Assembly (NCBI GenBank): GCA_022925895.1
Contig: JAKSYS010000408.1
Span: forward strand, 1 to 55,188
DNA: 55,188 bases
Reading direction: 5' to 3'
From: Fragilaria crotonensis
Taxonomy: Eukaryota > Bacillariophyta > Fragilariophyceae > Fragilariales > Fragilariaceae
Part shown: one piece after another, positions 2,697 to 22,849 of the stretch
Layout of the letters: the number at the start of each line of letters is the position of its first letter
How positions within the stretch are numbered: the stretch's first letter is position 1
Notes under the pieces: model-generated
What the model was told of the DNA's origin: nothing
Database searches by the model: none
The model's input: only the letters and a program-made list of their open reading frames with translations
Program-made: the position numbers and the translations under genes

Positions 2697-2707
2697 CTTA
2701 TGTCAAT

Positions 2708-2748
2708 ACAAACAAACAAACAAACAAACAAACAAACAAACAAACAAA
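2708..2748. repeat. (CAAA)n microsatellite
   Basis: About ten perfect copies of a CAAA unit just downstream of the LSm4 stop codon, in its probable 3' UTR. Confidence 0.95.
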
Positions 2749-2918
2749 GAGGATTATTGAATTATCATCGACCAGATCTGTAGCTGTTGTCTAGGAGATC
2801 GTCACCATACCACTGTCAACATTAGTAGTCATCGTTTCGTGCAATCCAAAACCTAGATTAAACATGTAGGACAAAGAGCCAACGCAATCAACAACGCATG
2901 ATACGTCCAATTCTCAAC

Positions 2919-4765
2919 TTAAAAATCATCAATGTGTCTTCGGCTGCTCTTGGACCTCGTCGACTTGGATCGCGTGGAGGGTGGCTCGTAGGTGCCACCA
3001 CCCGTGCGTTCCTTGCGGCTCGACGATCGTCGGGACGCGCTCTTGGATCTGCTGCCACTGCCACTACCCGCGCGAGACTTGGAGCGCGTCGCACCCGAGC
3101 TGGATCGAAAGACACCGTCTCCATCGGGCTGGCGAGACGAATCCAGCAGTCTACGAGATCTTCCGGACGACCGCTCGCGGTGACGCGAACGACGAGCCAC
3201 GGCAAAGGCCAAGAAGGTGGCGACAAAGACAATAAAGGCAAACGAGACGAAGACGTTGGACAGCATGCGGGTCCAGCGCGATTCGTCGGCACCGGCAACG
3301 GAGGCGAGCTCTTGAGCGGTGGCAGTTCCAACTGTGTAGAACTCTGAGGCGTCTCGCCAAAGACGACGCCACCGTAGGTGACTGAGAGGATTGTGCCCTG
3401 CGCGTGACCGAGCGAGATGCAGTCAGCATCGCAAGTGTAGGAGTTGTGGGAGTAGAACTTCCAGCACTGATTGATGAGATCATCGTCATCGGTACCGTAG
3501 TCACCGATGAAGTAACCATCTTGGTATGTTGGATAGTCAACACGAGGTGCAATACTTGTAGGATTCATAGACGTCGTTGAGTTGAGTGAAGGTGTACTCC
3601 TGAGTGTCCGACCACCACGTATACATATCACCGTCATAGTTATACGCATCTCCATTTCCATTTCCATTCTCGCCGTTCTTGTCTTGTGAGGAGAGGCCAT
3701 GGAAGTGGTGAGGCCAAAGCTATCATATGTGACGCCCAGGTTGTCATTGGGCGTTAAGCAATAGGCATCGGTGTAGAGAGCCATTTCAAATCTCGCCTCC
3801 GCTTTTGGGGCAACGGCGGCATAGATGGCTTGCCCATCTGAGCTGTAACCAACTTGGAAGCACTCGTATTTGGTCATGTAAGACAAGCCTGCCAACGCCA
3901 CAACGTACTCGTATTCATCAATAGCCCAAAGATGCTTCGAAATCTGCTCAATATACTGATAGAACTCTTGCCTGTACACGCCAATAAGCTCCCAGTCACT
4001 ATCTGGATTGTGACAATCCAACACTCCACTTGGATTGCCACCAAAGTATTCGTCATAACCATTTCCAGAGTAGTTAGGGTCAACATACTGTTATGTTGAT
4101 GAGTTGAATGAGGGAGGAACCACGCCTTGAGTGAGTTTTCGTTTCGGCAGCGACGAGAGCGAGGACGCACTGAAGCAAACTTATGGCGTCAATAACAAGG
4201 AAAGAAAAGAAGAACTTACCGCAGCCCACATCATCCAACGGGAGCATCCCACAGTGTCTGCATCTTGATTTTGCTGATTATCACCGCTTTTGTGATTGTT
4301 GCTGACCTTCGGATGATCGCAATCTATAAATCCTCCCAACATACGGTACGCCTGCTGCCACTTATCATATTGCTGACTAGGATCGGCCAACCCCGCATTG
4401 CTGTAGGGATCATAGTTGGAATTCGAGTTCCAACCGGCACGACGAACCCATGGATGATCCTCTTGGGCTGCCTTGTCCCATTCTTCCTTGGACAATCGCT
4501 GCATGCTGGAGATATCAGGAGATATCGATGCAATCTTTTGGCGTGCCTTCTCTCGTCGAGTGCGCTGCCTCTCCATGCGAGCCTCGCGATCAAGCTCAAG
4601 CTTTTCAGGATCCAAATACTTTAGGTTTCGGCGAATGTCCTCGATCGTCATGTTGTTGTTGATGTTGTTGAAGTTGATTCGGTTCGCGTCCATACCGCCG
4701 GCTCCGACGGAAAATGGGGCGACCAACAAGACAGTCAATGTCACGATGGACTGGAGGAACATCAT
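2919..4765 (-). CDS. Secreted/type I membrane protein of unknown function, two exons, frame-broken
   Basis: Not a family I can name. Exon 1 (4765-4220) starts with a signal peptide (MMFLQSIVTLTVLLVAPFSVGA), then an Arg/Glu-rich helix (about residues 48-80) and a Tyr/Asn-rich stretch. It ends at GCG before GTAAGT. Exon 2 starts at 4087 after CAG in the same phase (YVDPNYSGNGYDEYFGG) and continues with an aromatic, Cys-containing lumenal domain (VLDCHNPDSDWELIGVYR, NQCWKFYSHNSYTCDADC). Near the end comes one membrane helix (NVFVSFAFIVFVATFLAFAV) and then a short Arg/Ser-rich cytoplasmic tail ending at 2919. The frame changes near 3700, near 3545 and near 3355. Each time the new frame continues sensible protein (e.g. 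NGDAYNYDGDMYTWWSD), so the breaks look like single-base indels. The architecture points to the cell surface or an endomembrane. Confidence 0.7.
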
Positions 4766-5331
4766 CAGGTCCTACAACTGCAGCTACAATTGATCTGTAT
4801 TAAAGGAGCAACGGATGATGTAGGATGAGGTTTGGTAAGGGGATGTCGTATGCTACCTTTTTGTGCTCTGTACATACAATACCACTCGATTGGACCACAA
4901 AGGTATGTACCAGTAGAACGACCGTGTCGTGTGGAGAGTTTATGGCGTTCAATTGCTTACACTCAGGACTCGCAGAATCTCCGCCAATGATTTCCTCATA
5001 TATGAAGACAAGATATGATAACTGCTTTTCGATTGGCTTTTTCCAGCGGCTATCGAAATACTTCATGATTGAGATAATGTTCTTTGTACAACCCTGTATA
5101 CATTACTCTCGCCTTTCAACGGATAATCCATTCCTAAATATTCGTTTCTTCTAAGGATTTGACAAAATATATCGGGGAAGGTTTCTCGCAATAAAAAAGT
5201 AAGAGATGTCGGTAATTGTACGGTACTTGTACTACTGTAGTGTACTGGTCCAAGGTATTCACGCAAATAGCTGTACCTGGTATTGTACTTGTGGTACTTG
5301 GACTTTGAGTACTTGTACCATGTACCATGTA
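4766..5331. other. Intergenic between membrane-protein gene and element A
   Basis: It should hold the promoter of the minus-strand membrane-protein gene. From 5205 to 5331 it is GTAC-rich (GGTAC, GTACTTG). I see no gene. The last two bases (5330-5331) are the TA bordering element A. Confidence 0.5.
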
Positions 5332-8300
5332 CAGCAGGTTTCATCCTCAAAACTCCTAAGCTTGTGCTCGGTACAAAATGTACGTGTAGCCAATAGAAAT
5401 TAAGGTTGGACGTCATCGAAAGATTTATTTTTCGTGTTAAATGCGTGAGTTCCACAATGAGATTGCATGCCGTTGTTTGTCACTTTTCCACTCCTTACAA
5501 ACGGACTCACCCCAACAGTTGTCTCCCAAATCCCCTCAAGTATCGAGCTGACCGAGCGAGTCAGTTTACTATGGCAGAAAGTGGCGGTATCATCTCACTT
5601 ATTGCGAGGGCAGTGGTGTTGCTTCATTCCGACAAGTTGTACGGACCAAGATTGTCAAGTCGCTGGCTCCCAGCGGCAGCATGGGCTGAACTATTGGTCA
5701 AATCGGGTCACATTGATCCCACAATTGTGAGTATTGTTGATGCTCGAAAGTTTAATACTGCCATGTCCAAGTCAATTCTATTTGGTGAGTCGATGACCCT
5801 TTGACGGCACAAACCAATCTGGTATGTTCCGAGTGTGCTATCAGAAGCAATTCTTTACTACTTTACTGAGAAGAAAAGGCAAGTCTACTATCCGTTTCCA
5901 TTGGACAAAGCATGGAAGGAGAGAGCTGAGCAAGCAGCAGTGAATGCCCCCATTCCTTTGACACGAGGGCGACCACCAGCAGCAGAGAGTACACAAACTA
6001 CGTCCGACAATCAAGAAGTTCCGGAAAATAATGACCGTCAGCCAACAATTGGTGACATCTCTGAGCCTCCAAATAAACTACAACGGACAGATAGTTCAGT
6101 TGGCGGTGGTATTTCCTCCACATCGTGCTCGTATTGGCCTTCGAGTCCAGAGGCCTACTATTTGTTTAAACCGAGAGCTGGTACAGGTGAGACTCCGCAA
6201 GAGGCAGTGGAGCGGCGAATCCAACTGCTGCAATCCGTTCATAAGCATGAAGACAGTTGGAGAAACGTTATTGTTGGCCGAGATGCGGACCACTTTTGCA
6301 CCAAGGCCGAAATAGTGGAGATTCGACAGCGTGCAACATTTCTCTGCTGCGCGTATCAGCTTGCACTTGAACATATGAATCGATGGACATGGCAGGATTG
6401 TTGCAGGGAGGCCTGCAAGCGCTTGAATAGTCTTGGTATGTCCCAAGCTACATTCTACAAGACCGTTTCAGAGTGGAACGGTGTCTTCAGAAGCTTAGAG
6501 AGTTTCCCCCATCCCAACTTGTACGTCCAGTGTGGGAAGCGACCTCTTCCTCGTCTTCTCGAGATGTATCCAGATGCTAGAGATCAGATTGTTTCATTTG
6601 GAGTGAAGAACTTAGCTACCTTAACAATAGAAGGCATTCACGACTTCATTGTTAGCGTTGTTATTCCAAGACTTGCAACTGTTTGGAAGGAAGATCAACA
6701 AAAGGTGCTGGCGACAGCAGACAATAGTACTAGTACTGCTGCTGCCGCCATACTATCCCGAGAAGACGAACACGACGACAAGAACAAAGAACTGCTGACA
6801 GCATCTTTTCTCAAAGCACATGGGCTTGAGTCTATGAGTTTCACTACTGCTTGGCGTTGGATGCGATTGTTAAATTTTAAGTACGACGCTCGCAAGAAGA
6901 GTTTCTACGTTGACGGCCATGAGCGCGATGATGTCGTCCAGAATCGGAAGGAATTCTGCAAGCAATACTTGACAGAACTAGAGCCCTACTGTAGACGATG
7001 GGTGCAAGTATCAAAGAAGATGCGATGACTATGAATGGTTTAGATCTTCGATTAGGGCATAGCTACTTCGATATTGTAAACGATACTGAAATGTTCGAGT
7101 TCCACATCGACTACTGGAAATATTGCACCAAGAAGAATGGACCAACAAACCCGCCATTTACAACCACGTTGCATCCGACAACCAGCATACGAGTCTCGTT
7201 AAGAGCGACGCCCTAATGATTATTGGGCAGGACGAGAGCGTCTTTGCTCAGTACTTGCTTGGTAACAGGACTTGGATCGGGCCTTCTGGACAACGCCCGT
7301 TGTTGCCGAAGTCTGAAGGGACGGATACATGCTTTCGGCATTCGTATCTCGTGAGTTCGGCTTCGGCAGAGTGCTGACAAAGAAGAGTTAGATCAAGTAA
7401 ATGCAGCAAGGCGAGCGAAGGAATACTTACGTCGACAAACATGCTGCAAAGGAAGTACTTGGAACAATCAACAAGTCCGACTTGAAAGAATCGCCGCTAG
7501 TCAAGTATTTGTACATTGGAGCAAGAATGAAGGCTATGGATAATTTGAAGACGTTGTGGATTGCCTCCAGGTATTGTATCCTGAATTTCAATTTGTTTTC
7601 TGTTCGACCACAGTCAGGGACACGCACGCAAGAGAGACGGAGCACTGACTGCGTTAAGTATGTCAAAGGCTATGGCGGAGCACAAGCAAAGATGAGGACA
7701 CAATTATTTTGCAAGACGAAGGATACCTCGGTCCGCACTCACCTATCCTAAAGCTGGTGACACTCAGAGTCTGGTTTATCTTGAAAGCGATAGTGGTCCA
7801 TGGTACTTGTCACCAGAGCAACGGCAATCACAAACACGACCGACCCACTGGTCGAAGCAAACGTGTCGAAAGATCAAAGAAGGTACTTGTGGAGTGTCTC
7901 CGTGCTGCAGGTGTGACCCTCCAACAGCAACGTGGATATACAAGAAAGGAACTCCAAGAATTTGCGAAGAACAATGGCATCGATCTCCATGAGCAGAAGG
8001 AGGTTGTCACATTTGGTTGGGAGCGACAACCGAAAGGGCTTCTGCAAGTGCTTTGGGAAGAGGACTGATTGATTGTGAGGCAATAGACAAGTATACAGTT
8101 GACGGCCTGATATCATCAGCGGCAAGGTTGACTTACAGTATTCTTTGCGAGGCATCATGTCAAACTGTCGAGACTTCAAGGAGGAAGAAACTGCACTACA
8201 GCACTTAGGACGGCAATTAGGAGTAACTGTGATGCTGACGCCAGTTCCATGCTGAACTTGCGGGAGAAGGTGTTGAGTACAGCTGGGCACATGCAAAAGC

Positions 8301-8837
8301 CTTTTATAGGCGTCTGCCAGTCTCAGAAAGAGAGGGCGCGACAACTTTAAGCAGCTCGTGAAAGAGAGCACATGTCCTGCAAACGTATTGACAAAGATTA
8401 GAATCAGAAGTTTGCATCAAGGGCAGGGCTTACATATGTACATACCATCACATTGAAGAAGAGAAGAACAAGAGGTCGAATCCTGTCTCTGATATTGTTG
8501 AAGAGCACGCCACCAGAACAGCAGTATTACCTGGTGGTGGTGACGATGCCGTTCAAACCCAATGCACCAGCAATTGCACTTCACGAAGATTGAACGGATC
8601 TCGAAAGCCTTCAAAGGGCACAGGTGTGCCCTCGACTTTGACAGCGGCTTCGTCAATTCTGAATTCAGGGAAGTGATTGAGATCAACGACGAGATGTAAA
8701 TCAATTTTTTATGATGACGACCGTGTTACAATTCTGTTTGCAGAAAGATTTCCCGGATATTTACTTTGGAAAATTGTATAGGTCGTAGATTTTGTACTGA
8801 CCTCTACTTTAGGAGGGGTTCATGATGAAACCTGCTG
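5332..8837 (+). mobile_element. Element A: decayed 3.5-kb DDE transposon with TA target site
   Basis: The left end at 5332 reads CAGCAGGTTTCATC, and the same word appears inverted ending at 8837. Both ends are bordered by TA (5330-5331 and 8838-8839). Similarity between the ends continues inward for about 50 bp with mismatches, including a shared CTCCTAA and a shared GTACAAAAT block. Inside is one decayed transposase gene on the plus strand. The TA borders, inverted ends and DDE gene fit a Tc1/mariner-superfamily element. Size and gene content match elements C and D at 33.2-40.4 kb, but the terminal repeats differ (CAGCAGG against TGGCTGGG), so it is a distinct and older family member. Confidence 0.8.
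5572..8699 (+). pseudogene. Transposase of element A (DDE, DGHER-type), degraded
   Basis: Reads as broken pieces of the protein seen in elements C and D. The start is probably MAESGG at 5572. A 60-nt intron 5785-5844 restores the phase (SILF|EAILYYFTEKKRQVYYPF). The long piece to 7028 has the helical region (EIRQRATFLCCAYQLALEH) and YVDGHERDDVVQNRKEFC. After a frame slip near 7010 comes the first catalytic Asp in IIGQDESVFAQY (about 7220). The second is in FLFDHSQGHA (about 7600), the helical GYTRKELQEFAKNNGIDL segment lies near 7950, and the third acidic residue is in HAELAGEGVEYSWAHAK (about 8260). It ends CALDFDSGF...INDEM with a stop at 8697. At least five frame changes make it inactive. 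Confidence 0.75.
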
Positions 8838-8839
8838 TA

Positions 8840-9747
8840 CGACTAGTAGGACAGATCTATGTATGCATATTCATTTTAAATATAGTAGTATGATATAGTG
8901 ATACTCGAAGTACCGGGTATCATACAGTACCAGTACGCGTCTATGTGTACGTATGTATGACACATACACACATACAGTATCTGAAGAAAATGGTCATGAG
9001 ACCATCCTGATATCATTTGCATGCTTGGCGAAACAAATAATACTCGGAGTAGGCGTTCGGTCGTCTACTACATGTACCGATAGCCCGATAGCTAGTAGCT
9101 ACCGGTAGTACAAGTAGTACTGGAGTAGACAATAGCAATTTTTGAAGATGGCAGTCGTGACTTGTCGACAACAACAAATACTCCGAGTACATGTACTGGT
9201 GCTGCAGTGCAGTACTGGTATCTGTGCCAGTTGTATGTATCATAATGTTGTAATGCTCGAATCACGTGTATGTATGTATGTATGTATGTATATGCCGTTG
9301 ACATGTTGAGATAATACAGTAGGTACTGGTACCGTGATAGGCGTACGCTACGGGCACCCGCAATACGCAATCGACATTTGTCAAGTCGCATGAGTCGATT
9401 TCGTCCAAGTTGGTGATGTCACCAGAATGTGAATGTAAAAGAAGAGAATCCTTGAGTTCGGGGTCGAAGAATCTTAAGTGAGAGTTGGCTGGCAAAGCGT
9501 GTCTTGCCTTCACTATTGATTCCTACGTGGAGCGTACAGAAAACAACGATTCAAAATTGTTGCTGTGAAATTCTTTCCCACGAGGGAGCGCTTCCTTTAT
9601 GCCGTAGTGAATCAGTGCGCTGCACTCTCGAAAAGTCTGTTAAAGAAGTGACTGTGCCGACGACAACGACGGCCTTCCACCAACAGCAGAGCAACATTGA
9701 TTTTCTTCACTGCTCTGAATAATTGATATAGAACTTGGTGTGATAGG
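8840..9747. other. Intergenic with GTAC-rich sequence and a (GTAT)n run
   Basis: No gene recognised. There is a CTACCGGTAG palindrome at 9099-9108, many AGTACT/GTACTG words (8900-9240 and 9315-9340) and a short (GTAT)n run near 9267-9290. The last few hundred bases should hold the promoter of the HNH gene; I see no convincing core element. Confidence 0.5.
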
Positions 9748-11379: not shown

Positions 11380-12437
11380 TCATGATGACGATTCACCATG
11401 CCAAAGGAAGGCACAAAACAACATACTCCACCACGACAAAAGCCAACCCTGGGAAAAACATTCTACTCCAATCATTCCCCCACGACTTTTGTCGTCTTCC
11501 AAAAAACGGAGAGGCAGGAAACCCAAGTATGGATTAACACCACCTCCTCTGATGCGCTTTCGTTTCTCCTTGGTCCTAGCCTCTGCCACTGCCACTGGAA
11601 ACACAGCCAAAAAGTGATTGCCCGCAGCCAATTGCTTCCCCGGAACGACATCGGGGAATCGCGAATCGGCCGACAGTATATGCAATGCTTCCTTTCGATC
11701 AAACCGGGGTGACCCAAAGCATGCCATGCGACGCAACCGAAATTCCTCTTTATTTCTCTTGTACGGGTACAATTCGTAGATATGTATGGGTCGTTTTAAA
11801 AGATTGCAAAGCGCCACAACTTCGGGGCCTCCGCCCCAAAAGGATTCTTGTCGCATTGTCTCGCAATATTCCTCCGGAGTACAACCGTAGGGAGAAGCCG
11901 CTGTCTCGATCAAATCGCGGGCACGCATGTACTCACGACCCTGCAAATACAAGAGTCGCTTCGGTTTGGAGGCCAAGTAATCAACGGCCCGTTCTCTTAA
12001 AATGCGGGAATGTTCCCGCAGTTGGTCCATATTATTGTCATAACAAAAGTGCGTCCCATTCTCCACCTTGCTCAAACAAATCGTCAAGGAATGGAATAGG
12101 CAATTTCCATCACCGGGAACTTGTCGGATGCGGACCGGCACGCCCGTGATGATTTGCAATGCTTGCCTCCAATCGCATCCTTGCCCACTTCGAGCTCCGA
12201 TGGGATCCGAACGTACGGACGGGCCAAAAATTCCTCGCGATCAATTTGGGATGATGGATTCCAAAGCAACGCGGGAGATGACGATTCGCCACCGTCTGAA
12301 AAGGTTCGGAAATTGACGGATCGCGGAAGTGCAGGTTTCGTGGGCGCGCTGCTGTCGGCCAAGACATTGAAGATTGCGAATGAGAGGACTACATAGCGGA
12401 GGGCGTTACAATGGGAAGGTCGAACAAGGGGCAACAT
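11380..12437 (-). pseudogene. OTU-family cysteine protease, copy 1 (one frame break; may be an assembly error)
   Basis: OTU proteases remove ubiquitin or related modifiers from proteins. The N-terminal piece (12437 to about 12160) has a hydrophobic leader (YVVLSFAIFNVLA) and an ALPRS motif shared with copy 2. The frame then slips by one base near 12160 (GGKH | LQIITGVPVRIRQ). The catalytic piece holds IRQVPGDGNCLFHSL (Asp17 and Cys20 of the 259-codon piece), EVVALCNLLKRPIHIYEL and AGNHFLAVFP (His182), so the triad is intact. The basic, Gly-rich stretch KRIRGGG is also shared with copy 2; a longer tail follows. It has no intron that would explain the slip. It runs away from copy 2 (19478-20401), and the MULE lies between the two promoters. 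Confidence 0.8.
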
Positions 12438-13753
12438 AGCGACGACACAGCACAGTTAGAAGACTGAGTGGCGCTGCGTTTTCAGCTATTCCATAAGTCA
12501 AGCTCAAAAGCTTTCAACAGTACCAGGTACAGTGCCAGCTGTCTGTATTTCTGATTGGATCCGGTGGTTTCATGTCGTCCCAGTCCAAGACCTGTCTGTC
12601 GGACACTTGTCATGAACTTCCGCGAAGCGCTTCATGGCACAGTGATCAGTACCAACTGAAGTACTGTAGTACTATGTACCACGTACCAATCCATTTGAAT
12701 CACTTTAAATCCTGGTACTGTACTGATAGTACGTACTACATACTACTACTAGCTAGCATGTACTACAGTAGTATTATACATTTGATACTGCGTGTTAGAC
12801 CAGTTACTCGTACTTGTGCGACATACAGACTATCTGTACTGGAGTATTAGTACGATGCATACGAACTACGAACACTCGCCTAGTAGTGTAGTAGAGTACT
12901 GGAGTACTACCGGTAGTACAAGGTGACAGACTTCCAGCATCGCCCTACATGTTTTTACATGTATCCCTATCCCTAACTGTCGCCCGTGTGCACAGTAAAA
13001 CGTTACATCCGTGCTCCAGTAACCAGTGCGACACTGCACGACTGGAATCAAAACTCTCGTCGATTTGAATTTCATGTTCATCTCATCCCATGAGATTGAA
13101 CACTCATTTTCAGACTCAACGCCTCGTATACGGACGACCACGCCGCGACACGAAACGACGTCTCCGCGAAACGAGTAGTGTTCCTTATTGTTCCAAAGGA
13201 ACACTCCCTTCATTCAGACCTCTCATCTGTTGCCCCTCCTCACTCTTCTCACAATTGTCAAAATAATTCATTTTTAGTGCCACTTACCTTTTCGTGAATA
13301 CTGCACATATTTGCACATGATGAATGAATTCTTTGACCATGACGAATTTTTACCGCCGGTCGTCAAATTGTCAACCTCACCATACTGTACATATATCAGT
13401 AGTCAGTACGACGGTACTCACTATTACGACAGCACACAGCACGGCAAGCAGTACAACAGTACTTCTTGCACATCACTTCCTCTGCCCGGCCATAGTCCGT
13501 GCACGTCTGAGTCTATCGTTACCGTACATAACGATAAACTATTAGACAGTGCCCACTATGACCAAAGCGATATTATTACTAGTCAGTCCCTCGCACATTT
13601 ATGTAGCGATAGACCGACAGATAGTATACGTATCGTTGTCTGTAGCGGTAGACAGCAGTGTATTGCTGTACCGTTAATAGACACACTAAGCAGTAGTCAG
13701 TGTCGTACTAGACACTTACCTACTGGGGGCGTGCCCCGTAACGGTCACGTCCT
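12438..13753. other. Intergenic upstream of OTU copy 1
   Basis: Dense in GTAC/AGTAC words between 12520 and 12920, with a CTACCGGTAG palindrome at 12907-12916. Open frames in 13311-13979 have no recognisable content and run across the terminal repeat of the MULE. I see no gene. Confidence 0.5.
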
Positions 13754-13812
13754 GGTTCTTAACCGGAACCTTATGCGGATCCGATTAACTGTCACCTATT
13801 TTTCGTCATCGT
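13754..13812 (+). repeat. MULE left terminal inverted repeat
   Basis: 13778-13812 is an exact 35-bp match to the inverted right end. The outer ~24 bp are similar but gapped. Confidence 0.85.
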
Positions 13813-14066
13813 ACGACACGTTACTTAAGGACCTTGTAGAAAATTTAGCTACAAGTGGAAGCTGTTCAAGATGGGAATTTTGTTTCCTTTCCTCGACTTA
13901 TTTTCTCAATCAATTCACCGCGCCTGCCCTCCCTGCTCTGAATTTGAATTTGAATTCATGCACATATTCACGTACATAAATCTGATTTAAAATAAGAATA
14001 ACTCGACATTTTTTCACCGTACTGCAGCACCATTCCATTCATTGTTCCCACTCCTATTGTATTGAG

Positions 14067-15659
14067 ATGTCTACCGACACCACAACGTTCTTGCAAACAA
14101 GCCAAGCCGCGGTGACAAAGTCATTACAGGTGGCTTTGGACGGCGCATCCAAGGATCTGAAACACTGGAGAGCGGTTATTCCTTTCCTTATCAGGGCATC
14201 CCATGCACCAGGCTCTTTACTAAATGTTCCTTCAGATAGTCATGAGTGCGAGGACATTCTTGAGTATTTGCAACCTATGTACAAAGGTTACAAGATATAC
14301 TTCAGTGACAAGTACTCTGCATCCATTTCTAGTGGCGGTGGCTGGAAGGAGCTTCTGAAGGACCTTGCAATTGCAGGAATGCAAGGTGGATTCTACCTAA
14401 TTGGAAATGGTAGTTACAAGGACAAACATATTGTTGTGTGCCGAGGAAGCCGCTTGTATCAAGGTACTAAGAGGCAGCAGCTGAGTCCCAGCCAGAAGCC
14501 GCAATACAGGAATGAAACTTTGCACTCTGATCGCAACAATTCACGTGGAAATGTTGGGAAACTTCTTCCCCGCAAGACTCGCACTACTCGTGCAATAGAG
14601 AAAGGTTCTGTCTGTCCATTTCGAATGAATATTGGACTGGATTCTTTTGGATACTATCTTGCTGGCGGAACCGGAAATTCTCATCATGCATATCACCCGA
14701 AGGTATTGAAAGTTGAGTATGCTGTCCCAACGCGACTTATTGGTGGAGTTGAAAAGGACATCCTAGTTAGCGTTGGTAGCGCGAAGGCTAATGATGGTGT
14801 GGGGAGAAGTATTCATTTCTCTCGATGCAGATACGTGATTCCTAGAAGTCAGGTTAGATACATTAATGGGTTTCGGGGTGGGGCCTGCAACAATGATGGT
14901 AATTCTGCACTCCGAGACAGTCCTGATCAGAGTCCAATTGACAAGCTTCTTACTTCCTTTCGAACCAAAGGTTTTGATCATTGCGTTCTTTACCATCATC
15001 TTCCGCATCAAAACGGGGATGTCACGATGGGTGAGGAAATTCCTTCATCCATGGATCAAGATAATGCGCATCCAACAATAGGAATAATGGTGAATGAGTC
15101 ATTTGGTGATGACGGTGATCACAATGTTCAGCCTTCTCCACCAACATCCATAAAAGTTGTGCTTCCTGATAGTGAGGATTTGGACATGCAGTTATTTGCG
15201 AGAACACATCGACACTCACTGTTGGTGGATGACAAGCAAGACCTCATGATTGGTTGTGCTTGGACAACACCTCCCGAAAAGCGCCTATTCAAAATGTTCG
15301 GCGAGGTGCTCCACATCGATTGTACTGCCGATACAAATTACGAGGACAGACCGTTCCTCACAATAACTGGGCGGGACTCGAATGGAAAGATGTTCACTGT
15401 TATCCGCGCTTTTCTTCCGAATGAACGTGCCTGGGTTTTTCGCTGGTTATTTCAGACAGTAATGCCTTCTTTGCTTGGAAGGGAATTCATTGGAAGAGTA
15501 AAGGTCATTGTGACAGACGGCGATTCACAAGAAACATCACAGCTTGATGAAATGGTTGCCCAACTTGAACCTCAGTTCCGTGACATGTTCCTTACTGAAT
15601 GCGTCCCTGTCAATAGTCCTTCCGTCAAGTATGTGCAATACGACCCCAACACAAAATAA
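14067..15659 (+). CDS. MULE transposase, C-terminally truncated
   Basis: 530 codons starting MSTDTTTF. The middle has a basic, Cys-containing stretch (KGSVCPFRMNIGLDSFGYYLAGG) like the DNA-binding region before MULE catalytic domains. The RNase-H-like core is clear: LHIDCTADTNYEDRPFLTITGRD with the first Asp at 418, a WVFRWLFQTVMP helix, and VIVTDGDSQETSQLDE with the second Asp at 484. The family then normally continues for well over 100 residues with a third acidic residue and a Cys/His cluster. Here the reading frame stops 46 residues after D484, and its last ~120 bases overlap the 3' end of the Ulp1 gene on the other strand. It therefore probably lacks the third catalytic residue and cannot cut on its own. 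Family assignment is firm. Confidence 0.85.
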   Translation: MSTDTTTFLQTSQAAVTKSLQVALDGASKDLKHWRAVIPFLIRASHAPGSLLNVPSDSHECEDILEYLQPMYKGYKIYFSDKYSASISSGGGWKELLKDLAIAGMQGGFYLIGNGSYKDKHIVVCRGSRLYQGTKRQQLSPSQKPQYRNETLHSDRNNSRGNVGKLLPRKTRTTRAIEKGSVCPFRMNIGLDSFGYYLAGGTGNSHHAYHPKVLKVEYAVPTRLIGGVEKDILVSVGSAKANDGVGRSIHFSRCRYVIPRSQVRYINGFRGGACNNDGNSALRDSPDQSPIDKLLTSFRTKGFDHCVLYHHLPHQNGDVTMGEEIPSSMDQDNAHPTIGIMVNESFGDDGDHNVQPSPPTSIKVVLPDSEDLDMQLFARTHRHSLLVDDKQDLMIGCAWTTPPEKRLFKMFGEVLHIDCTADTNYEDRPFLTITGRDSNGKMFTVIRAFLPNERAWVFRWLFQTVMPSLLGREFIGRVKVIVTDGDSQETSQLDEMVAQLEPQFRDMFLTECVPVNSPSVKYVQYDPNTK

Positions 15660-16310
15660 TCCGCAATCAATTCCATTGAGTTGCTGTGGACACTCCTGGT
15701 ATTTGAGCTTCTCAAGTACTTCATAATGCGCGCGTTGCAAATGATTGTGTTCGGGTCTATGCAACACGAAATTACACAAGAAGTCATTCACTTCTGCCAC
15801 AATTTCTGATGAGTCTGAAGGAAGATTTGCGGACGCTCTTGTGGAGCGTCGCAAAGAATCGTAGAAGTGAATATTGATGAAGAAGTCAGGGCAGGCCTGG
15901 TTGAAATCGACAACAAAGACAAAGAAATGCACGTCCTCAACAACGGGGACGATGAGCCTGTTCACACAGTCATTGTGCAAGTCAAAAACGTGTTCGAGAC
16001 GAGAACGAATCTTTGCAATTTTCTTTTCCTTGTACGTAGATGTTCCACCAGTCGTATCTTCAAACAAGGCATTGTTTGCAGCCATGTATGAGCGCACAGC
16101 GAGAGACCCAAGAAGAACTTTATCAGAAGACTTTGCTGCCGGTGGTGGTGGTGCAGCGCACTGGATGAGGCAGTTTAGGAGTCGGGTATTCAACATTCTT
16201 CCATGTATGAGCGCACCCACATCTTGTCTTATTACACGCTCCTGCACGCCGTACCGCGGATCACCAGGAAAGTGTGTCTGCTGGTTCTTTTTTGGCTTCT
16301 TCCTCACCAT
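15537..16310 (-). CDS. Ulp1-like (C48) SUMO-type protease of the MULE
   Basis: 257 codons. The papain-like Ulp1 catalytic residues are all visible: His128 in EDVHFFVFVVD, Asp151 in IHFYDSL, Gln210 and Cys216 in QQLNGIDCGLFCVGVVLHIL. Ulp1/SENP enzymes cleave SUMO precursors and SUMO conjugates. Transposon-borne relatives occur in MULEs of plants and other eukaryotes, where their role in transposition is unknown. The N-terminal 60 residues are basic and Pro-rich. The gene runs toward the transposase, and the two stop-proximal regions overlap by about 120 bases. Its probable promoter lies in the AT-rich tandem repeat at 16476-16765. No break is seen. Confidence 0.85.
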   Translation of the reverse strand: MVRKKPKKNQQTHFPGDPRYGVQERVIRQDVGALIHGRMLNTRLLNCLIQCAAPPPPAAKSSDKVLLGSLAVRSYMAANNALFEDTTGGTSTYKEKKIAKIRSRLEHVFDLHNDCVNRLIVPVVEDVHFFVFVVDFNQACPDFFINIHFYDSLRRSTRASANLPSDSSEIVAEVNDFLCNFVLHRPEHNHLQRAHYEVLEKLKYQECPQQLNGIDCGLFCVGVVLHILDGRTIDRDAFSKEHVTELRFKLGNHFIKL

Positions 16311-16475
16311 TGTTTTGCTTGAGGCAAATGAGTCCGGAGTCCGGAGTTACCCTGAAGGTTACCTTAGCTTTGTTGTGTTGTGTCGTTGTGTCATGCGACG
16401 AAACAACAAACACGTATTTTTGTGATACTGTTTTGAAAATCCTGGTTATTGCATACGTTATCCTACGGTGTTATT

Positions 16476-16765
16476 GAAAAATGGAAAGATAACAGGTGTT
16501 TTTGAGAATAACGTATTATCAATAACACCGTCTAAGTTTTACACTAATTACAATAACACCTTTTAAGATTTCGTATTATCAATAACACCGTCTAAGTTTT
16601 ACACTAATTACAATAACACCTTTTAAGATTTCGTCGTATTATCAATAACACCGTCTAAGTTTTGCACTAATTACAATAACACCTTTTAAGATTTCGCATT
16701 ATTACAATAACACCGTTTGCAGCGGCAGAAAAATGGAAAGATAACACGTGTTTCTGAGAATTCCC
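16476..16765. repeat. Tandem repeat, ~60-63 bp unit, bordered by a direct repeat
   Basis: Copies start at 16512, 16572 and 16635 (the last with a CGT insertion), followed by a partial copy near 16696. Each holds two AATAACACC words. A separate direct repeat, GAAAAATGGAAAGATAACA, flanks the block near 16478 and 16728. It lies between the ULP and DSBH-like genes of the MULE, upstream of the ULP start. Confidence 0.9.
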
Positions 16766-16771
16766 CTTCAA

Positions 16772-17975
16772 TTATTGCAGGACTCCAGCCTGAAGTACCC
16801 TGAACTTTGCTGCAGTAAAGGAGCCGAACAATAAGTTTTGCTCCTCAACATTGCTTGCACTCGGCTCACAGAGCGACGTACAGTGCCTAAGCACCCTCCC
16901 ATCCCAACTTATTGCCACGCCATGGGTAAGCTTCACAGCGAGTCCATGAAAGTTATTCCCGGCCTCGTCAACCCCAACCACATTGGGCATTACAAAATAC
17001 CAATTTTTAGCTGCACCCGGAATCGTTTCGGTCCAAACGCTGAACCCAGGTGAGGCATCCCAAACATCAAAATGGGAAGCGTTCATGAGGTTGACACTCA
17101 TGTCAATGGAGAAGCCCACACGAAGAAAGTGGCCATCGCCATCCATAGGTGGAACTGGGGGGATGCCTGAATCGGCCTCCAGCTCTTGGATCATCGTGAG
17201 AACGTCAGGGAAACAATGCCTCCCCACAATCGAAAGACTCTGAACGAACTCTCGCAGAACTGGCTCGGGGACCAACAAATTGGTTGTGTACGCACTCATT
17301 CCCACCCCATCACGGTGAATGCGAGTCCCAATCGGCGGAAGCAAGATCGACGGGCGTCAATGCTCGATTCAAGACGACATCCATCAGAATGAATTCTTGC
17401 GGAAACGAGCTTACAGAGCCGGATGGACGGAAGACATCGTCCTCACGAAGGGATTCCAATTGCTGTATTTGGAAACGCGGATAGCCACCACCCGATAATC
17501 CCAACACCTCTTGCAGCCCATCCGCAATCCACCGAATGGGAGTGTAGCAAATCGTGGGCTCGACATGTTTGGCACTTTCGGCTTCGTTTTTAACGCATGT
17601 CGAGAAGAACTCATCGAAACCCCCCCTCAAGTCCCCCGGCAAACACTTCAGAAGGACGTCCAGCACTTGTAACTGTGAGGGGACGCGTTTCCGAACGGAC
17701 CGAATTTTCGGTTTCCTACCCTTCCGACCTCTCCGATGTTTTCCGGCATGATGATGCGATTGCACAGGGTTAACAGCAGGGACAGGAACGCCAACATTTG
17801 CTGCCTGCCCGGAAGCCACAACCCTAGTAGGCGTGCACCCGAGATTAAGAATGGAGGAGCGACATGGATTCGTCAGCACCCTCGTGGCCAACACGTCGTT
17901 TGCGGCATTCCTCGGGAACAATCCCGCAACAACACCACTTACAACATGATCATCGACAGCGCTATGCGTCATCAC
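16772..17975 (-). CDS. MULE-borne gene, possible double-stranded beta-helix (2OG-Fe dioxygenase-like) protein, one frame break
   Basis: The N-terminal piece (17975 to about 17340) has a basic His/Arg/Lys stretch (HHHAGKHRRGRKGRKPK) and a helical region. A one-base slip near 17340 leads into the C-terminal piece (VDL|LPPIGTRIHRDGVG...). That piece, numbered from its own first Met, has SHFDVWDAS (His91, Asp93), WYFVMPNV, and GLAVKLTHGVAISWDGRVLRHCTS (His141, Arg150, Arg153). HxD followed about 48 residues later by H-x8-R is the metal and 2-oxoglutarate pattern of the Fe(II) dioxygenase fold, with beta-strand-like spacing between. I remember the ISWDGR-RHCTS motif as recurrent in diatom genomes but know of no assigned function. 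The fold call is inference; that this is a real gene is well supported by length and context. Confidence 0.6.
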
Positions 17976-18002
17976 AAAAGATGAGGCTGCACGAGGCTGC
18001 TA

Positions 18003-18410
18003 CCGGTTCGGGCGGAAAAACGAACAATCCCTGGCAACCCACTCCACAGTTGTGGCAGAGCGTGATCAATCGGGAAAGCAAGCTGTCACGTCCAAGGGTG
18101 CCGCCGGTTCGTACGAAAAAACAAGCAATCCCTGATGACCCACTCCACAGTTATGGCAGAGCGTGATCGATCGGGAAAGCAAGCTGTCACGTCCAAGGGT
18201 GCCGCCGGTTCGTACGAAAAAACAAGCAATCCCTGACGACCCACTCCACAGTTATGGCAGAGCGTGATCGATCGGGAAAGCAAGCTGTCACGTCCAAGGG
18301 TGCCGCCGGTTCGTACGAAAAAACAAGCAATCCTTGACGACCCACTCCACAGTTATGGCAGAGCGTGATCGATCGGGAAAGCAAGCTGTCACGTCCGAGG
18401 ATGCTACAGG
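18003..18410. repeat. 101-bp tandem repeat, about four copies
   Basis: The word GAGCGTGATC recurs at 18058, 18159, 18260 and 18361, exactly 101 bp apart. The units differ by only a few bases; the first is the most diverged and the last is cut short at about 18400. It lies between the start of the DSBH-like gene and the right MULE end, so it may act in the promoter or subterminal region. Confidence 0.95.
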
Positions 18411-18736
18411 CGGCAGATCCTTCAATTGCTTGTACAGAAACGACGAGGAGGGTGCTTGTTTGGTGGGTCACGACAAAGGATGATCAACAGCAGAAGCAAT
18501 AACAATGAGGTATCGTTGTGTTTCAGGCAAAAATGAAATGAAATGAATGTCAGATCAGCAATGCAAAATCTCACGAAATAAATGTATCGATATACAGATA
18601 TCCACATCGTGATACATGTATTGAGCTGGATGGGGAACAATGCCGATTTGGCTGGCGCGCAATGCCGGTTTGAATGTTACACATACAATTTTTTTGATTT
18701 TTGTTTTCGACGGATGAGCAAGATTCCTATGATGTC

Positions 18737-18802
18737 ACGATGACGAAAAATAGGTGACAGTTAATCGGATCTGCGCGTCGACAGGTTCCGTTAACCCGAA
18801 CC
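18737..18802 (-). repeat. MULE right terminal inverted repeat
   Basis: 18737-18771 is the exact reverse complement of 13778-13812. The outer part to about 18802 is similar with gaps. Confidence 0.85.
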
Positions 18803-19477: not shown

Positions 19478-20401
19478 ATGCCTGCACCTGTCACCGCCAT
19501 CAAGAACCTTCTGCTCGTGTCGCTGAGCTTTCCCGTTGCTGTCACCGGACGTCAATATCAGGCTCTACCACGATCGACTCAAGGTGTCACCTTCTACCGA
19601 CAGCCATGGTCTCCTTCGTCGCAAGTCGATGGCCAGGGCTTTTTGACGGAACTCTACAAACGCATTCCTGGTAGTTGGGAGGAAGAGCAACCACTGAATG
19701 GAAAGCATAGAAGACTCAACGACGCGGAAGGAGCTCAAATTCGACAAGTTCCGGGAGACGGAAATTGTCTCTTCAACGCGATAGCCGTGTCTCTATGCAA
19801 GGTTGAACAGGGACAACATTGCCCCTTCGATGACAACGATTTTCAACAGCTACGTCAATATGCACAAGCTCTACGAGAAAAGGCTGTTGACTTTTTGGAA
19901 AAGCGAGCAAAAACTATCCATCGACCGCTCTACCTTCAAGGCGACACTTGTATCGAGACTCAAGAATTGTTGGAACATTTTTCCTCGCAATATGGAATGT
20001 CGGCTCAAGAATATTGCGATGCAATGCGACAAGATGGCGTATGGGCAGGTGGTCCCGAGATTGTGGCGCTCTGCAATGTAATGAAGCGTCCGATCCACTT
20101 GTATGAACTCCATGTGGATGACAATGACTACCAAGAGAGTAGTGACCGACCCAGAACTGCCCAATTTTGCCTGCGTCGCATGTGCTGCTTTGGATCACCT
20201 CGATTCGATTCTAAAGAGGCGATCCATGTTTTGTCTGCGGACTCTAGATTTCCAGATATAAATCCTGGACGACACTTGAGGGAAGGCAACCACTTTTTGT
20301 CAGTGTTTCCAGCGACAAGCTCAACGTTATCTCGGAAACCACAACGAGTGCGAGGGGGAGGCGGTATGCCCGAGGTTGCGTCGGAGCTTTATCTAAATTG
20401 A
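19478..20401 (+). CDS. OTU-family cysteine protease, copy 2, with signal peptide
   Basis: An intact 307-codon, single-exon OTU deubiquitinase-like protease. It starts with a hydrophobic leader (IKNLLLVSLSFPVAVTG) followed by QALPRS, shared with copy 1. The catalytic motif is IRQVPGDGNCLFNAIAVSLC (Asp94, Cys97). Then come YCDAMRQDGVWAGGPEIVALCNVMKRPIHLYEL, the typical middle segment, and EGNHFLSVFP with His272. The tail is basic and Gly-rich (PQRVRGGGG). A secretory leader on an OTU protease is unusual because ubiquitin is mostly cytosolic. It suggests an ER-derived compartment, the periplastid space or secretion, or the leader may be an anchor. The nearest relative in the window is the divergent copy at 11380-12437. 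Confidence 0.88.
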   Translation: MPAPVTAIKNLLLVSLSFPVAVTGRQYQALPRSTQGVTFYRQPWSPSSQVDGQGFLTELYKRIPGSWEEEQPLNGKHRRLNDAEGAQIRQVPGDGNCLFNAIAVSLCKVEQGQHCPFDDNDFQQLRQYAQALREKAVDFLEKRAKTIHRPLYLQGDTCIETQELLEHFSSQYGMSAQEYCDAMRQDGVWAGGPEIVALCNVMKRPIHLYELHVDDNDYQESSDRPRTAQFCLRRMCCFGSPRFDSKEAIHVLSADSRFPDINPGRHLREGNHFLSVFPATSSTLSRKPQRVRGGGGMPEVASELYLN

Positions 20402-22849
20402 CAACTGTTGCACACCTTAGGTCCTTGCTGGCCGTGAAGTGAGCGGTGAGCCTAATACTTTGAACGCGAACATTCTCTAGGATTTGAGGGTAGGAGTAAG
20501 TCGTGTCAAGATGACAGAACTCGAACAGGAGCTAACATGTAAGATATAGTAGGAAATACTGTAGTGTGTAGTACTGGCGCGCAGATCCGATTTCAACTTT
20601 CAACTGGCACTCTGATTTTTCGTCTTTGACAGTCTTCATGGTCGGGTCGATGTTAATACTAGCCGTTAATCAAATTCAGGAATCAAATAAAGCAACCACG
20701 TGTAGGGCTAGAGCTAGGTATATTAACCTTGTAGAGAAAAACCCCGTGCTGTACTCTTGCTAAAGTGTGTATGAGTACAGTACAAGCATACCAAGAGCTT
20801 GCGACATTAAGTGCTAATGTAGTGGTGTGTAGTGTGCAGTGTGCAGTGTGCAGTGTGCAGTGTGCAGTGTGCAGTGTGCAGTGTGCAGTGTGCAGTGTGC
20901 AGTGTGCAGTGTGCAGTGTGCAGTGTGCAGTGTGCAGTGTGCAGTGTGCAGTGTGCAGTGTGCAGTGTGCAGTGTGCAGTGTGCAGTGTGCAGTGTGCAG
21001 TGTGCAGTGTGCAGTGTGCAGTGTGCAGTCAGCATCGTGCACTGTACACACGGCAATCCATGATGACTATACTCTAGATTGCAATTGCGAGTCTTATCCT
21101 TTGTTAACCCGTGCCAGCCCATTGATTTCATCACAACTGCTACATGGAACTTTTAAACAGAGAAGAATTCAAAAGGGACAACGAGCCCAGTGTAGCCCTG
21201 GATCTCTTGAGACATACAATAACAAAAAGAATGACAAACTTGCTTGTGACACACAAATAGTATCTCAGGACATGGCTGTCTTCTATCCCAGGAGTGTAAT
21301 TCAAAGACTGGAATGATTAGTCCATCTCAGGAAACAATAAGGCTGCATGAATGACCACCATCTTATGTGATTGTTCCACTTAATTGTAATCAACAAAAGC
21401 ATCCTCTGTCTCACATCCTACCCTTCTCAACACACCAGCAGCATTTTAAGTTGAGCAGGGGAAGTTTGTCTGATCTTGAATCAAAGCATGGCTGTACACA
21501 GGCAGGCGTAAAGATTGAAAAATCCAAGATTTTAATGATGAATGAGGAGGTGAACAGCCAGCCATGGCCTAGAAACCTTCAGTATTTTTGTATTTATTGT
21601 TTGCCAACAGTAAGGTTGGGTTGACAATTCAAAATTTGAAAAGCTCTATTTTTGGCATGCGCAAGGAGAATGAAAAGGAAAAAATGTGCAGTTATTCACT
21701 TTTTTGTCTCACATAGTAAGGGTGGGCCTAGCCCCCAAAAAATTACTAGCTTGTATGAACAGGGAAAGTATGTGCACTTGAGTTGGAGCATTTGTTTTTA
21801 TGCCTTGCTTGAACAGCACCAGTGGAGGGGGGATTCCAAAAAACACGTATCACTTGTTTTTGTAGATCGTTACGATACGTGTATTGTATTTTCAATGGGT
21901 TACAACCATGTGGATGTTAGTATTTCTAACTTTTTTGCTGTCGTTTCCAAAACACAACACATCCATTGATGGGCAATGAATTTGGTCGCTCCGTTGCATT
22001 TCATTCCATTCTTCTCCCTCTGTGAAAGTACCCTTGCATTCAGTTTGTTATGGACAAGAATACATGCTGTGGTACTTTATGTAGAGAAACATCATGCTCA
22101 GAAGCGCAAATGGTATCATAGCTACCGGTACCTGGTAGTTGCCAACCATCTTTGTCATTCTAGGTGTATCAAAAGACAGTTTAGAAGTAACTGTCTCAGT
22201 ACCAGCGTCGTATCAGCCAGTTGCCATTACATTCCTCATCAAGCACAGTATCTGACCTATCAGAGCATGGTGTAGGTTCGACAAATCCAAATTCCAACCA
22301 GAACAAGAAGGTTTGATAGCCCCGCCTGGGCTCGATTTTGCATGTTTCAGCTGTAAGAGGAATGGCTGCAGATTGCAAGATTATGAGCAGAAGTCAGAAG
22401 TACAATTTGTGATTTGTTTACCTCACACATCACACACACACAAATTTGGGCTAAAATTGCTGAAACAAAAAGTGTATGTTTATATATATATGTGATATTT
22501 TCTTTCAAAACGATAGAGCCTGATTTTTAACAATGGGATACACTTTTCGCGCGCTGCCGTTATCTAACGGACCAGATTTATTTAATTCGTGGATGTCTGC
22601 CTTCGTAATCTTTGATCCACTGGGCGCACGTATGGATGCTCTTAAAAACCAATATTGGATCCCGTATATAGTATGGAGTATATAACATGTTTCCACCTAA
22701 ATGTATGTATGATACTGTACGAGTGGAACACCGTCATGGCGTCATTGCAAGTATAATCCAGAATTTTCGATGTTTCACTCGCTATCACACGTGTTGCGTG
22801 GTCGAATCGAACCACTCCTTAGTAGTAGTTCAACTTTCTTGTCAGCGTC
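20402..22849. other. Long intergenic stretch, AT-richer, no gene recognised
   Basis: Apart from the 7-bp satellite I can identify nothing. Short open frames (longest about 100 codons at 21652-21969) have no recognisable motif and no consistent codon pattern. A CTACCGGTACC word, a variant of the recurrent palindrome, lies near 22122. The last ~100 bases precede the gene at 22850. Confidence 0.5.
20831..21029. repeat. (GTGTGCA)n 7-bp tandem repeat, about 28 units
   Basis: Nearly perfect heptamers over about 200 bp. Because 7 is not divisible by 3 and no unit contains a stop, all three forward frames and the reverse frames are open (CSVQCAV, CTLHTAH). The open frames here are therefore not genes. 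Confidence 0.97.

What the first reader, a model, noticed from the sequence alone, without database searches (positions are those of the whole stretch)
13754..18802. A MULE carrying a SUMO-type protease and a possible 2-oxoglutarate dioxygenase
Between inverted ends (35 bp identical) lie a MULE transposase, a Ulp1 protease with its catalytic residues intact, and a gene whose C-terminal part has HxD (H91, D93) and H-x8-R (H141, R150) at DSBH spacing. MULE-ULP pairs are known. TET/JBP dioxygenases travel with some fungal transposons. The combination of MULE, de-SUMOylase and a DSBH-like protein would suggest an element that edits both protein and possibly DNA marks. The fold and the DNA role are inference.
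Basis: partly seen in the sequence, partly recalled or inferred. Interest (0 to 1): 0.85.

Follow-up and report, generated by a model that had tools for sequence, protein, structure and literature searches.

The report
Diatom transposons share candidate demethylase gene
In a diatom genome, several unrelated kinds of jumping DNA carry versions of the same large protein with an iron-enzyme-like metal site, which may help them escape DNA-methylation silencing; the copy in this window is a damaged, shortened one.

Summary
The window holds a 5.0-kb internally deleted copy (13777-18772) of a ~9-kb diatom MULE family. Terminal repeats, MULE transposase ORF, Ulp1-type protease and the third gene are present, but the transposase and protease C-termini and ~760 bp inside the third gene are missing compared with longer copies.

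The third gene belongs to a large family (148 places counted, a lower bound). It accompanies at least five transposase lineages: three MULE types (one element with a perfect 9-bp duplication) and two Plavaka-like types (CATCR...YGATG ends, 2-bp duplications in four elements). Of 148 places, 110 are within 6 kb of one or are window-family copies by DNA match; orientation is nearly constant per lineage. dN/dS is 0.15-0.34.

No search matched a known oxygenase, and the permitted single-sequence structure prediction failed. A TET/JBP-like dioxygenase acting as anti-silencing cargo is the best-supported mechanism, not shown. Some copy sets show excess CpG transitions, consistent with methylation. 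Fungal TET/JBP transposons are the closest parallel; the held papers I searched showed no diatom or MULE case.

The parts
13777..18772 (.). Internally deleted (non-autonomous) MULE copy, 4,996 bp, of a family whose longest copies seen are 8.5-9.0 kb
13777..13812 (+). Left terminal inverted repeat, GGATCCGATTAACTG...
18737..18772 (-). Right terminal inverted repeat
14067..15659 (+). MULE transposase ORF, 530 aa; collinear with the parent only to ~15547, then a tail after the deletion; C-terminal part lost
   Evidence: Pfam MULE and ZSWIM1-3_RNaseH-like; junction; a SWIM-like match lies in the missing part of L001 (16.2 bits, below its cut-off 19.6)
15547..15548 (.). Junction of the ~2.8-kb internal deletion (L001 2021-4817 missing)
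   Evidence: same in L008 (C91)
15537..16310 (-). Ulp1/SENP-type (Peptidase_C48) protease ORF, 257 aa, C-terminal extension lost
   Evidence: Pfam; longer ULP ORFs in L001/L002; motifs
16512..16716 (.). 60-63-bp tandem array, 3.3 copies, in the element
16772..17344 (-). ORF3 C-terminal frame, 190 aa: candidate Fe(II) dioxygenase domain
17310..17975 (-). ORF3 N-terminal frame, 221 aa
17327..17335 (.). Junction of the ~760-bp deletion inside ORF3 (L001 6776-7537 missing)
17066..17074 (-). HxD motif, H91-F-D93 codons
   Evidence: invariant in 20 of 20
17057..17059 (-). D96 (HxD + 3), same spacing as the position that contacts N4 of 5mC in TET2, NgTET1 and CMD1
   Evidence: invariant in 20 of 20; parallel from passages of PMC11040006 and PMC7854593
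16883..16885 (-). H154, the likely distal iron-binding His
   Evidence: invariant in 20 of 20
18003..18404 (.). 101-bp tandem array, 4 copies, near the right end

Best explanation
The finding is a dead-end, internally deleted copy of a diatom MULE. Its third gene is the remains of an accessory protein (ORF3; open frames of about 700-1,160 aa elsewhere in the genome) that unrelated DNA transposons in this genome carry and have exchanged. Most likely ORF3 is an iron-dependent (HxD...H) oxygenase with a C-terminal double-stranded beta-helix domain. It would oxidise a methylated base on the element's own DNA, or a chromatin mark, and so keep the element transcribable and mobile in a host that silences transposons by CpG methylation. 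In two MULE groups it is paired with a SUMO protease that could loosen SUMO-dependent silencing or change transposase stability. Shown here: the gene family, its place inside transposons of two kinds, near-constant orientations, purifying selection, invariant candidate metal residues, and a CpG-transition excess in three of six copy sets. Inferred: the fold, iron and co-substrate use, DNA as substrate, the anti-silencing role.
For: Linkage, 148 places used, within 6 kb: 34 near Plavaka-like A, 22 near Plavaka-like B, 32 near a MULE (Pfam) or ULP hit, 19 near MULE-C; chance 0.5-3% per place. Orientation: Plavaka A 34 of 34 and MULE-C 19 of 19 convergent, B 21 of 22. Inside termini: MULEs L027, L028, L029, L037 (L037 with a perfect 9-bp duplication 5 bp outside the detected repeats) and Plavaka-like C17, C405, C1, C497, each with a 2-bp duplication. 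Exchange: the MULE/Plavaka label needs at least 4 changes on the tree. Selection: dN/dS 0.15-0.34 in six ORF3 pairs, a seventh saturated with pN/pS 0.39. Metal residues H91, D93, H154, plus D96, invariant in 20 of 20. CpG transitions 96/8686 vs 79/32371 at other C/G in window-family pairs, 18/1754 vs 7/6479 in a Plavaka A pair, 14/1528 vs 7/4960 in MULE-ULP pairs. TEs are main targets of methylation in diatoms (passages of PMC9998398). Fungal TET+ Plavaka have CATCA..TGATG ends and 2-3-bp duplications (PMC12730594).
Against: No Pfam, NCBIfam, PHROG or PDB-sequence match to an oxygenase. The best PDB-sequence match of the domain profile, E 0.001, is a designed helical pore on its helical part. 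No Tet_JBP match in this genome. Profile against TET2/TET1 distal pieces no better than shuffles (173 and 239 of 2000 as good), proximal piece 487 and both pieces 265 of 2000, hhalign probability 0.6%. No invariant Arg or Lys at the usual 2OG place after the distal His, and the TET pattern R-x5-[FY]-x-[HR] is absent. Single-sequence AlphaFold model worthless, pLDDT 33.8. Window-family ORF3 frames are broken or in pieces in the seven copies listed. 38 of 148 places have no assigned transposase; only 23 of 91 MULE hits, 34 of 47 Plavaka A, 22 of 46 Plavaka B and 19 of 27 MULE-C loci have ORF3 within 6 kb. CpG is not depleted overall (observed/expected 0.72-1.04), three of six copy sets have too few CpG changes to judge, and no ORF3-less control was run.
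Confidence: 0.55

Rival explanations
1. ORF3 is a DSBH oxygenase, but it acts on protein (histone or transposase) or RNA rather than on DNA, like JmjC or prolyl hydroxylases.
For: HxD...H is common to all these families; no TET-specific profile match; pairing with a protein-modifying Ulp1 protease in two MULE groups.
Against: D96 at HxD+3 matches the base-contacting position of TETs; the transposon-borne dioxygenases described in fungi are TET/JBP (PMC12730594); CpG decay in some copy sets points to DNA methylation as the silencing mark.
Confidence: 0.2
2. ORF3 is not an oxygenase: the invariant H/D/H set is structural or binds another metal, and the protein is a DNA-binding or targeting partner of the transposases, or an anti-silencing factor of a new fold.
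For: No sequence search reached any oxygenase; no conserved 2OG-binding Arg/Lys in the usual place; a long conserved N-terminal half of unknown nature.
Against: The only two invariant His of the C-terminal domain, with D93, sit in HxD...H order; the same kind of cargo in fungi is a dioxygenase (PMC12730594).
Confidence: 0.22
3. The third gene was captured by chance by this MULE and has no role in the element.
For: The window copy's frame is broken and MULEs often capture host fragments (abstract start of PMC6446971).
Against: Recurs with five transposase lineages in near-constant orientation; dN/dS 0.15-0.34.
Confidence: 0.03

Closest known systems
Fungal TET+ DNA transposons (among them Kyakuja, Dileera, Zisupton, hAT, Harbinger, EnSpm, Plavaka, Helitron; PMC12730594: abstract, passages and sections 20, 23, 26 read)
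   Same: An accessory gene with HxD...H carried by several unrelated DNA-transposon superfamilies and exchanged between them; Plavaka carriers with CATCA..TGATG ends and 2-3-bp duplications; proposed anti-methylation role
   Different: Diatom host; MULE carriers (the paper's two mentions of MuDR concern other accessory genes; diatoms are not mentioned); ORF3 is not recognised by the Tet_JBP profile and lacks the TET Arg pattern
Plant MULEs with ULP-like genes (Kaonashi type; recalled, only search listings seen)
   Same: MULE transposase linked to a Ulp1-type protease
   Different: Here a third gene is added; in one group ULP and MULE can be one ORF (L030), in the window family ULP is on the opposite strand
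MULE-Diatoms clade of Dupeyron et al. 2019 (PMC6446971, passages)
   Same: Diatom MULE with SWIM zinc finger; 'No TSD and not indicated' in the table, as in the window family
   Different: Its listed terminal repeats are 123-124 bp (here 36-38 bp) and no extra domain is listed
TET/JBP dioxygenases: TET2, NgTET1, CcTET, CMD1 (passages of PMC11040006 and PMC7854593)
   Same: HxD...H triad and Asp/Asn three residues after the HxD Asp (Gly in CcTET)
   Different: No significant sequence similarity to TET2/TET1 (the other three not compared); no R-x5-[FY]-x-[HR]

Membership tests
MULE (Mutator superfamily), window element | MULE DDE transposase domain | tested here: met
   Pfam MULE 36.4 bits, cut-off 27.6; the window copy has lost the C-terminal part
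MULE (Mutator superfamily), window element | Terminal inverted repeats | tested here: met
   36-38 bp
MULE (Mutator superfamily), window element | 8-11 bp target-site duplication (criterion recalled) | tested here: not met
   0 of 7 window-family copies tested (window included); in contrast L037 (MULE-C) has a perfect 9-bp one. PMC6446971 lists diatom MULEs as 'No TSD and not indicated'
Peptidase C48 (Ulp1/SENP) | Pfam domain above cut-off and catalytic residues | tested here: met
   37.8 bits, cut-off 20.7; H/D/Q/C contexts (residue assignment recalled)
Fe(II)/2OG oxygenase superfamily (DSBH) | HxD/E...H metal triad conserved in homologues | tested here: met
   20 of 20
Fe(II)/2OG oxygenase superfamily (DSBH) | Double-stranded beta-helix fold | tested here: inconclusive
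   single-sequence AlphaFold, pLDDT 33.8; no sequence-profile match to such a fold
Fe(II)/2OG oxygenase superfamily (DSBH) | Basic residue binding 2OG after the distal His | tested here: inconclusive
   no invariant Arg/Lys in the usual place; R150, R153, K180 are invariant but their position in a fold is unknown
TET/JBP | Tet_JBP profile match | tested here: not met
   not among the matches of 18 members at E <= 10, with HMMER's filters on, nor in the genome at E <= 1
TET/JBP | R-x5-[FY]-x-[HR] after distal His | tested here: not met
   against residues given in PMC11040006 and PMC7854593
TET/JBP | Asp/Asn at HxD+3 contacting N4 of 5mC | tested here: met
   D96 invariant 20 of 20; its contact with a base is not testable here
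TET/JBP | Oxidation of 5mC (or T) in DNA | not testable with these tools
   bench assay needed
Plavaka (partner elements) | Plavaka transposase profile | tested here: inconclusive
   L031 22.9 bits, E 6e-5, below cut-off 26.3; L033 and L035 no Plavaka match at E <= 1, but related to L031 by BLASTP
Plavaka (partner elements) | CATCA..TGATG ends, 2-3-bp duplication | tested here: met
   C17 and C405 exact; C1 and C497 CATCG..CGATG; each with a 2-bp duplication (TT, AC, CA, TA). C161/C134: CATCA at the left end only, no TGATG right end seen (criterion)

The most novel reading that the evidence does not exclude
Diatom DNA transposons carry a family of iron-dependent DNA-mark erasers that is not TET/JBP by sequence and that has moved repeatedly between MULE and Plavaka-type elements within one genome. 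On some MULEs it is paired with a SUMO protease, giving one element an eraser of a DNA mark and an eraser of a protein mark.
Probability: 0.42. Interest if true: 0.9.

Novelty: new variant of a known kind. Interest (0 to 1): 0.76.

Why it matters
If true, stealing a DNA-mark eraser is a wider transposon strategy, reached outside fungi and on Mutator elements too. It would give diatoms, in which loss of DNMT5a depletes methylation and raises expression of young transposons (PMC9998398, abstract and passages), a demethylation activity of transposon origin, directly testable in Phaeodactylum. Even without the enzyme claim, a protein family without a match in the libraries searched, shared by unrelated transposon kinds, is a strong lead to a common need of DNA transposons.

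Tried and rejected
Structure: AlphaFold of the window's own 189-residue domain gave pLDDT 33.8, pTM 0.24, so I ran no fold search. I did not hand in homologues from the fetch from genomes: the structure tool's text names other sources only, and I took that as its rule.

Distant relatives: viral contigs (33 pattern matches, 0 relatives), genome contigs (77, 0), phages (0). Pfam/PHROG/NCBIfam member scans gave only matches to single members, the strongest a ParD-antitoxin model at E 0.0016 in 1 of 19. PDB-sequence matches were designed helical repeats (best E 0.001), a PabB chain (E 0.021, 0.9 and 0.037 in the three searches), a viral glycoprotein, importin-5 and an antibody chain, all judged chance because they cover only the helical part or short loops.

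TET resemblance: by eye the distal-His stretch of TET2 (HG..LI...H.TT) looks like ORF3 (HGVLISWDGRLIRHCTS), but it scored no better than shuffles; rejected as evidence.

Chance capture of the third gene: rejected by linkage, orientation and dN/dS. A target-site duplication for the window family: looked for in 7 copies, none found.

Rows left out: (157 matches reported, the list itself cut short) I used 148 places and left out second fragments of the C137 and C311 copies. ULP: 77 of 102 rows (second fragments and weak duplicates dropped). MULE: all 91. Plavaka A 71 rows merged to 47 loci, B 72 to 46; MULE-C 44 of 62 rows merged to 27. The first looks had 565 and 492 candidates of which 49 and 60 were scored, so counts are lower bounds. 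The 14 window-family places were labelled from the DNA matches, not from distance. L016 and L013 were left out of A3 (large insertion; frameshift); L013 did not fit the pattern used for A4 and L021, a near copy, was used. The A4 rows were picked by a motif pattern that demands HxD and RH, so only A2 counts for conservation. The CpG pairs of the window family are not independent (L001 in 7 of 8).
Full report
WHAT IS IN THE WINDOW. The element runs from 13777 to 18772 if its ends are set by comparison with the eight fetched copies L001-L008 (L004 is cut at its left end by the contig end). The window lies on contig C346 of a 62.1-Mb assembly. That assembly is a diatom: silicon transporter PF03842 has 19 matches, 18 over the cut-off, best E 4e-193 (that this family marks diatoms is established knowledge).

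THE COPY IS DAMAGED. Copies L001-L003 are 8.5-9.0 kb. Against L001 the window copy lacks ~2.8 kb (transposase and protease C-termini) and ~760 bp inside the third gene; the C91 copy L008 shares both gaps, so a deleted form has itself multiplied. L005, L006 and L007 lack other parts. In longer copies the protease continues into an extension that matches the transposase ORF of another MULE group (48% over 116 aa, 1e-28). In the seven window-family copies whose ORFs I listed (L001-L007), the third gene is broken or in pieces.

THE THIRD GENE IS A LARGE FAMILY. A protein search of the whole genome with its C-terminal half reported 157 matches from 315 first-look candidates, 150 of them scored. Nineteen long homologues and the window domain align. 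Invariant in 20 of 20 are, among others, H91, D93, D96, W147-R150, R153, H154, T156, S157, G174, F176, K180; in the wider set A4, L031 has Ala for S157. dN/dS is 0.16, 0.21, 0.34, 0.19, 0.15 and 0.16 in six third-gene pairs, a seventh is saturated (pN/pS 0.39), and the ULP gene of one element pair gives 0.15 (several dS values exceed 1.5, so the ratios are rough). Intact members are under selection as proteins.

IT BELONGS TO SEVERAL KINDS OF TRANSPOSON. I compared 148 places of this gene with hits of MULE (91), ULP (77), two Plavaka-like transposase groups (47 and 46 loci) and a third MULE type (27 loci). Within 6 kb: Plavaka A alone 33, MULE/ULP alone 22, Plavaka B alone 20, MULE-C alone 18, window family 14 (assigned from the DNA matches), mixed 3, none 38. 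Orientation: Plavaka A 34 of 34 and MULE-C 19 of 19 convergent, Plavaka B 21 of 22; among MULE (Pfam) neighbours 16 divergent and 6 convergent. In the other direction, 34 of 47 Plavaka A, 22 of 46 Plavaka B, 19 of 27 MULE-C loci and 23 of 91 MULE hits have ORF3 within 6 kb, so many elements lack it. Three-gene MULEs come in two orders: transposase, then protease and ORF3 on the other strand (window family); and ORF3 facing away from protease plus transposase, which can form one ORF (L030, 1,042 aa).

INSIDE THE ELEMENTS. ORF3 lies between inverted repeats of 483-580 bp in L028 and L027, 33 bp in L029 and 72 bp in L037. In L037 a perfect 9-bp duplication, CGTTTTCAT, lies 5 bp outside each detected repeat end, which puts the element at 1877-9080; L028 has an 8-bp candidate (TAGATTAA, 3 and 2 bp from the detected ends); L027 and L029 showed none (boundary shifts of up to 6 bp were allowed; L029 gave only a 6-bp match inside its ends). 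In the Plavaka-like elements C17 and C405 the ends are CATCAGGGA...TCCCTGATG with 2-bp duplications TT and AC; C1 and C497 have CATCGGAA...TTCCGATG with CA and TA; C161 and C134 show CATCA at the left only. Fungal PlavakaB elements, the only Plavaka group with TET/JBP, are described with CATCA..TGATG and 2-3-bp duplications (PMC12730594 section 3.2.2).

EXCHANGE BETWEEN SUPERFAMILIES. A tree of 23 ORF3 proteins has two main clades, each with MULE-borne and Plavaka-borne members; the MULE/Plavaka label needs at least 4 changes, and a MULE-C copy (L018) lies with Plavaka-borne and unassigned copies at forks of 98/98 and 100/100. Labels are still clustered (10 changes for the six groups, shuffled mean 13.0). 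The window row is short and its place unsure.

HOW IT COULD WORK. HxD...H is the iron-binding set of Fe(II)/2OG oxygenases. The residue three after the HxD Asp (CcTET 326/328/331) corresponds to the Asn/Asp that contacts N4 of 5mC in TET2, NgTET1 and CMD1 (passages of PMC11040006 and PMC7854593); ORF3 has an invariant Asp there. Transitions at CpG exceed those at other C/G in copy pairs of the window family (96/8686 vs 79/32371), MULE-ULP (14/1528 vs 7/4960) and a Plavaka A pair (18/1754 vs 7/6479); in the other three pairs the numbers are small (3/550 vs 0/3501; 2/1632 vs 3/6913; 7/1646 vs 12/6450). This is what CpG methylation would leave, although CpG is not depleted overall (0.72-1.04) and I ran no control on ORF3-less DNA. 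Diatom DNMT5a loss depletes methylation and raises young-transposon expression (abstract and passages of PMC9998398). An oxygenase that removes the mark would pay an element. The Ulp1 protease may act on SUMO-based silencing or on the transposase; this is inference.

WHAT DOES NOT FIT. No sequence search recognises an oxygenase, the TET-specific Arg pattern is missing, profile tests against TET2 are at shuffle level, and the only structure prediction I ran failed. So it works, at best, like a TET; it is not shown to be one.

NOVELTY. Full-text searches: MULE + Ulp1 + transposon + diatom, 0 papers; the top 8-10 papers listed include the fungal TET+ paper and general MULE or diatom papers, and no title or abstract start that describes this. 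In the fungal paper MuDR appears twice, for other accessory genes, and diatoms not at all. The library lacks most subscription papers, so absence is only from what is held and listed.

Noticed in passing
window 11380-12159 (-) and 19478-20401 (+): Two OTU-type cysteine protease ORFs (Pfam OTU 8.9e-14 and 2.3e-15) flank the element on either side, on opposite strands; both hold the string IRQVPGDGNCLF.
   Followed up: no
window ~13516-13776 and L001 1-255: The left flank outside the element is also shared with the C137 copy (as far as L001 reaches), while the right flanks differ.
   Followed up: partly
L002 3863-5368 (-) versus L027 7216-8862: The window family's longer protease ORF carries an extension homologous to part of another MULE group's transposase ORF, as if taken from a protease-transposase fusion.
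   Followed up: partly
window 18003-18404; L001 8203-8912: A 101-bp tandem array near the right end varies in copy number between element copies (4 here, about 7 in L001).
   Followed up: no
window 20825-21029: A 7-bp tandem repeat (GTGTGCA), 29 copies.
   Followed up: no
L035 8253-9083, L036 7900-9093, L031 706-2130: Plavaka-like elements hold further ORFs besides transposase and ORF3; two of the three were scanned with no Pfam match over its cut-off.
   Followed up: partly
C138:50020, C108:544837, C571:69520, C40:92392, C22:17426, C279:8069: ORF3 copies with no assigned transposase within 6 kb; some may mark further transposon types.
   Followed up: no
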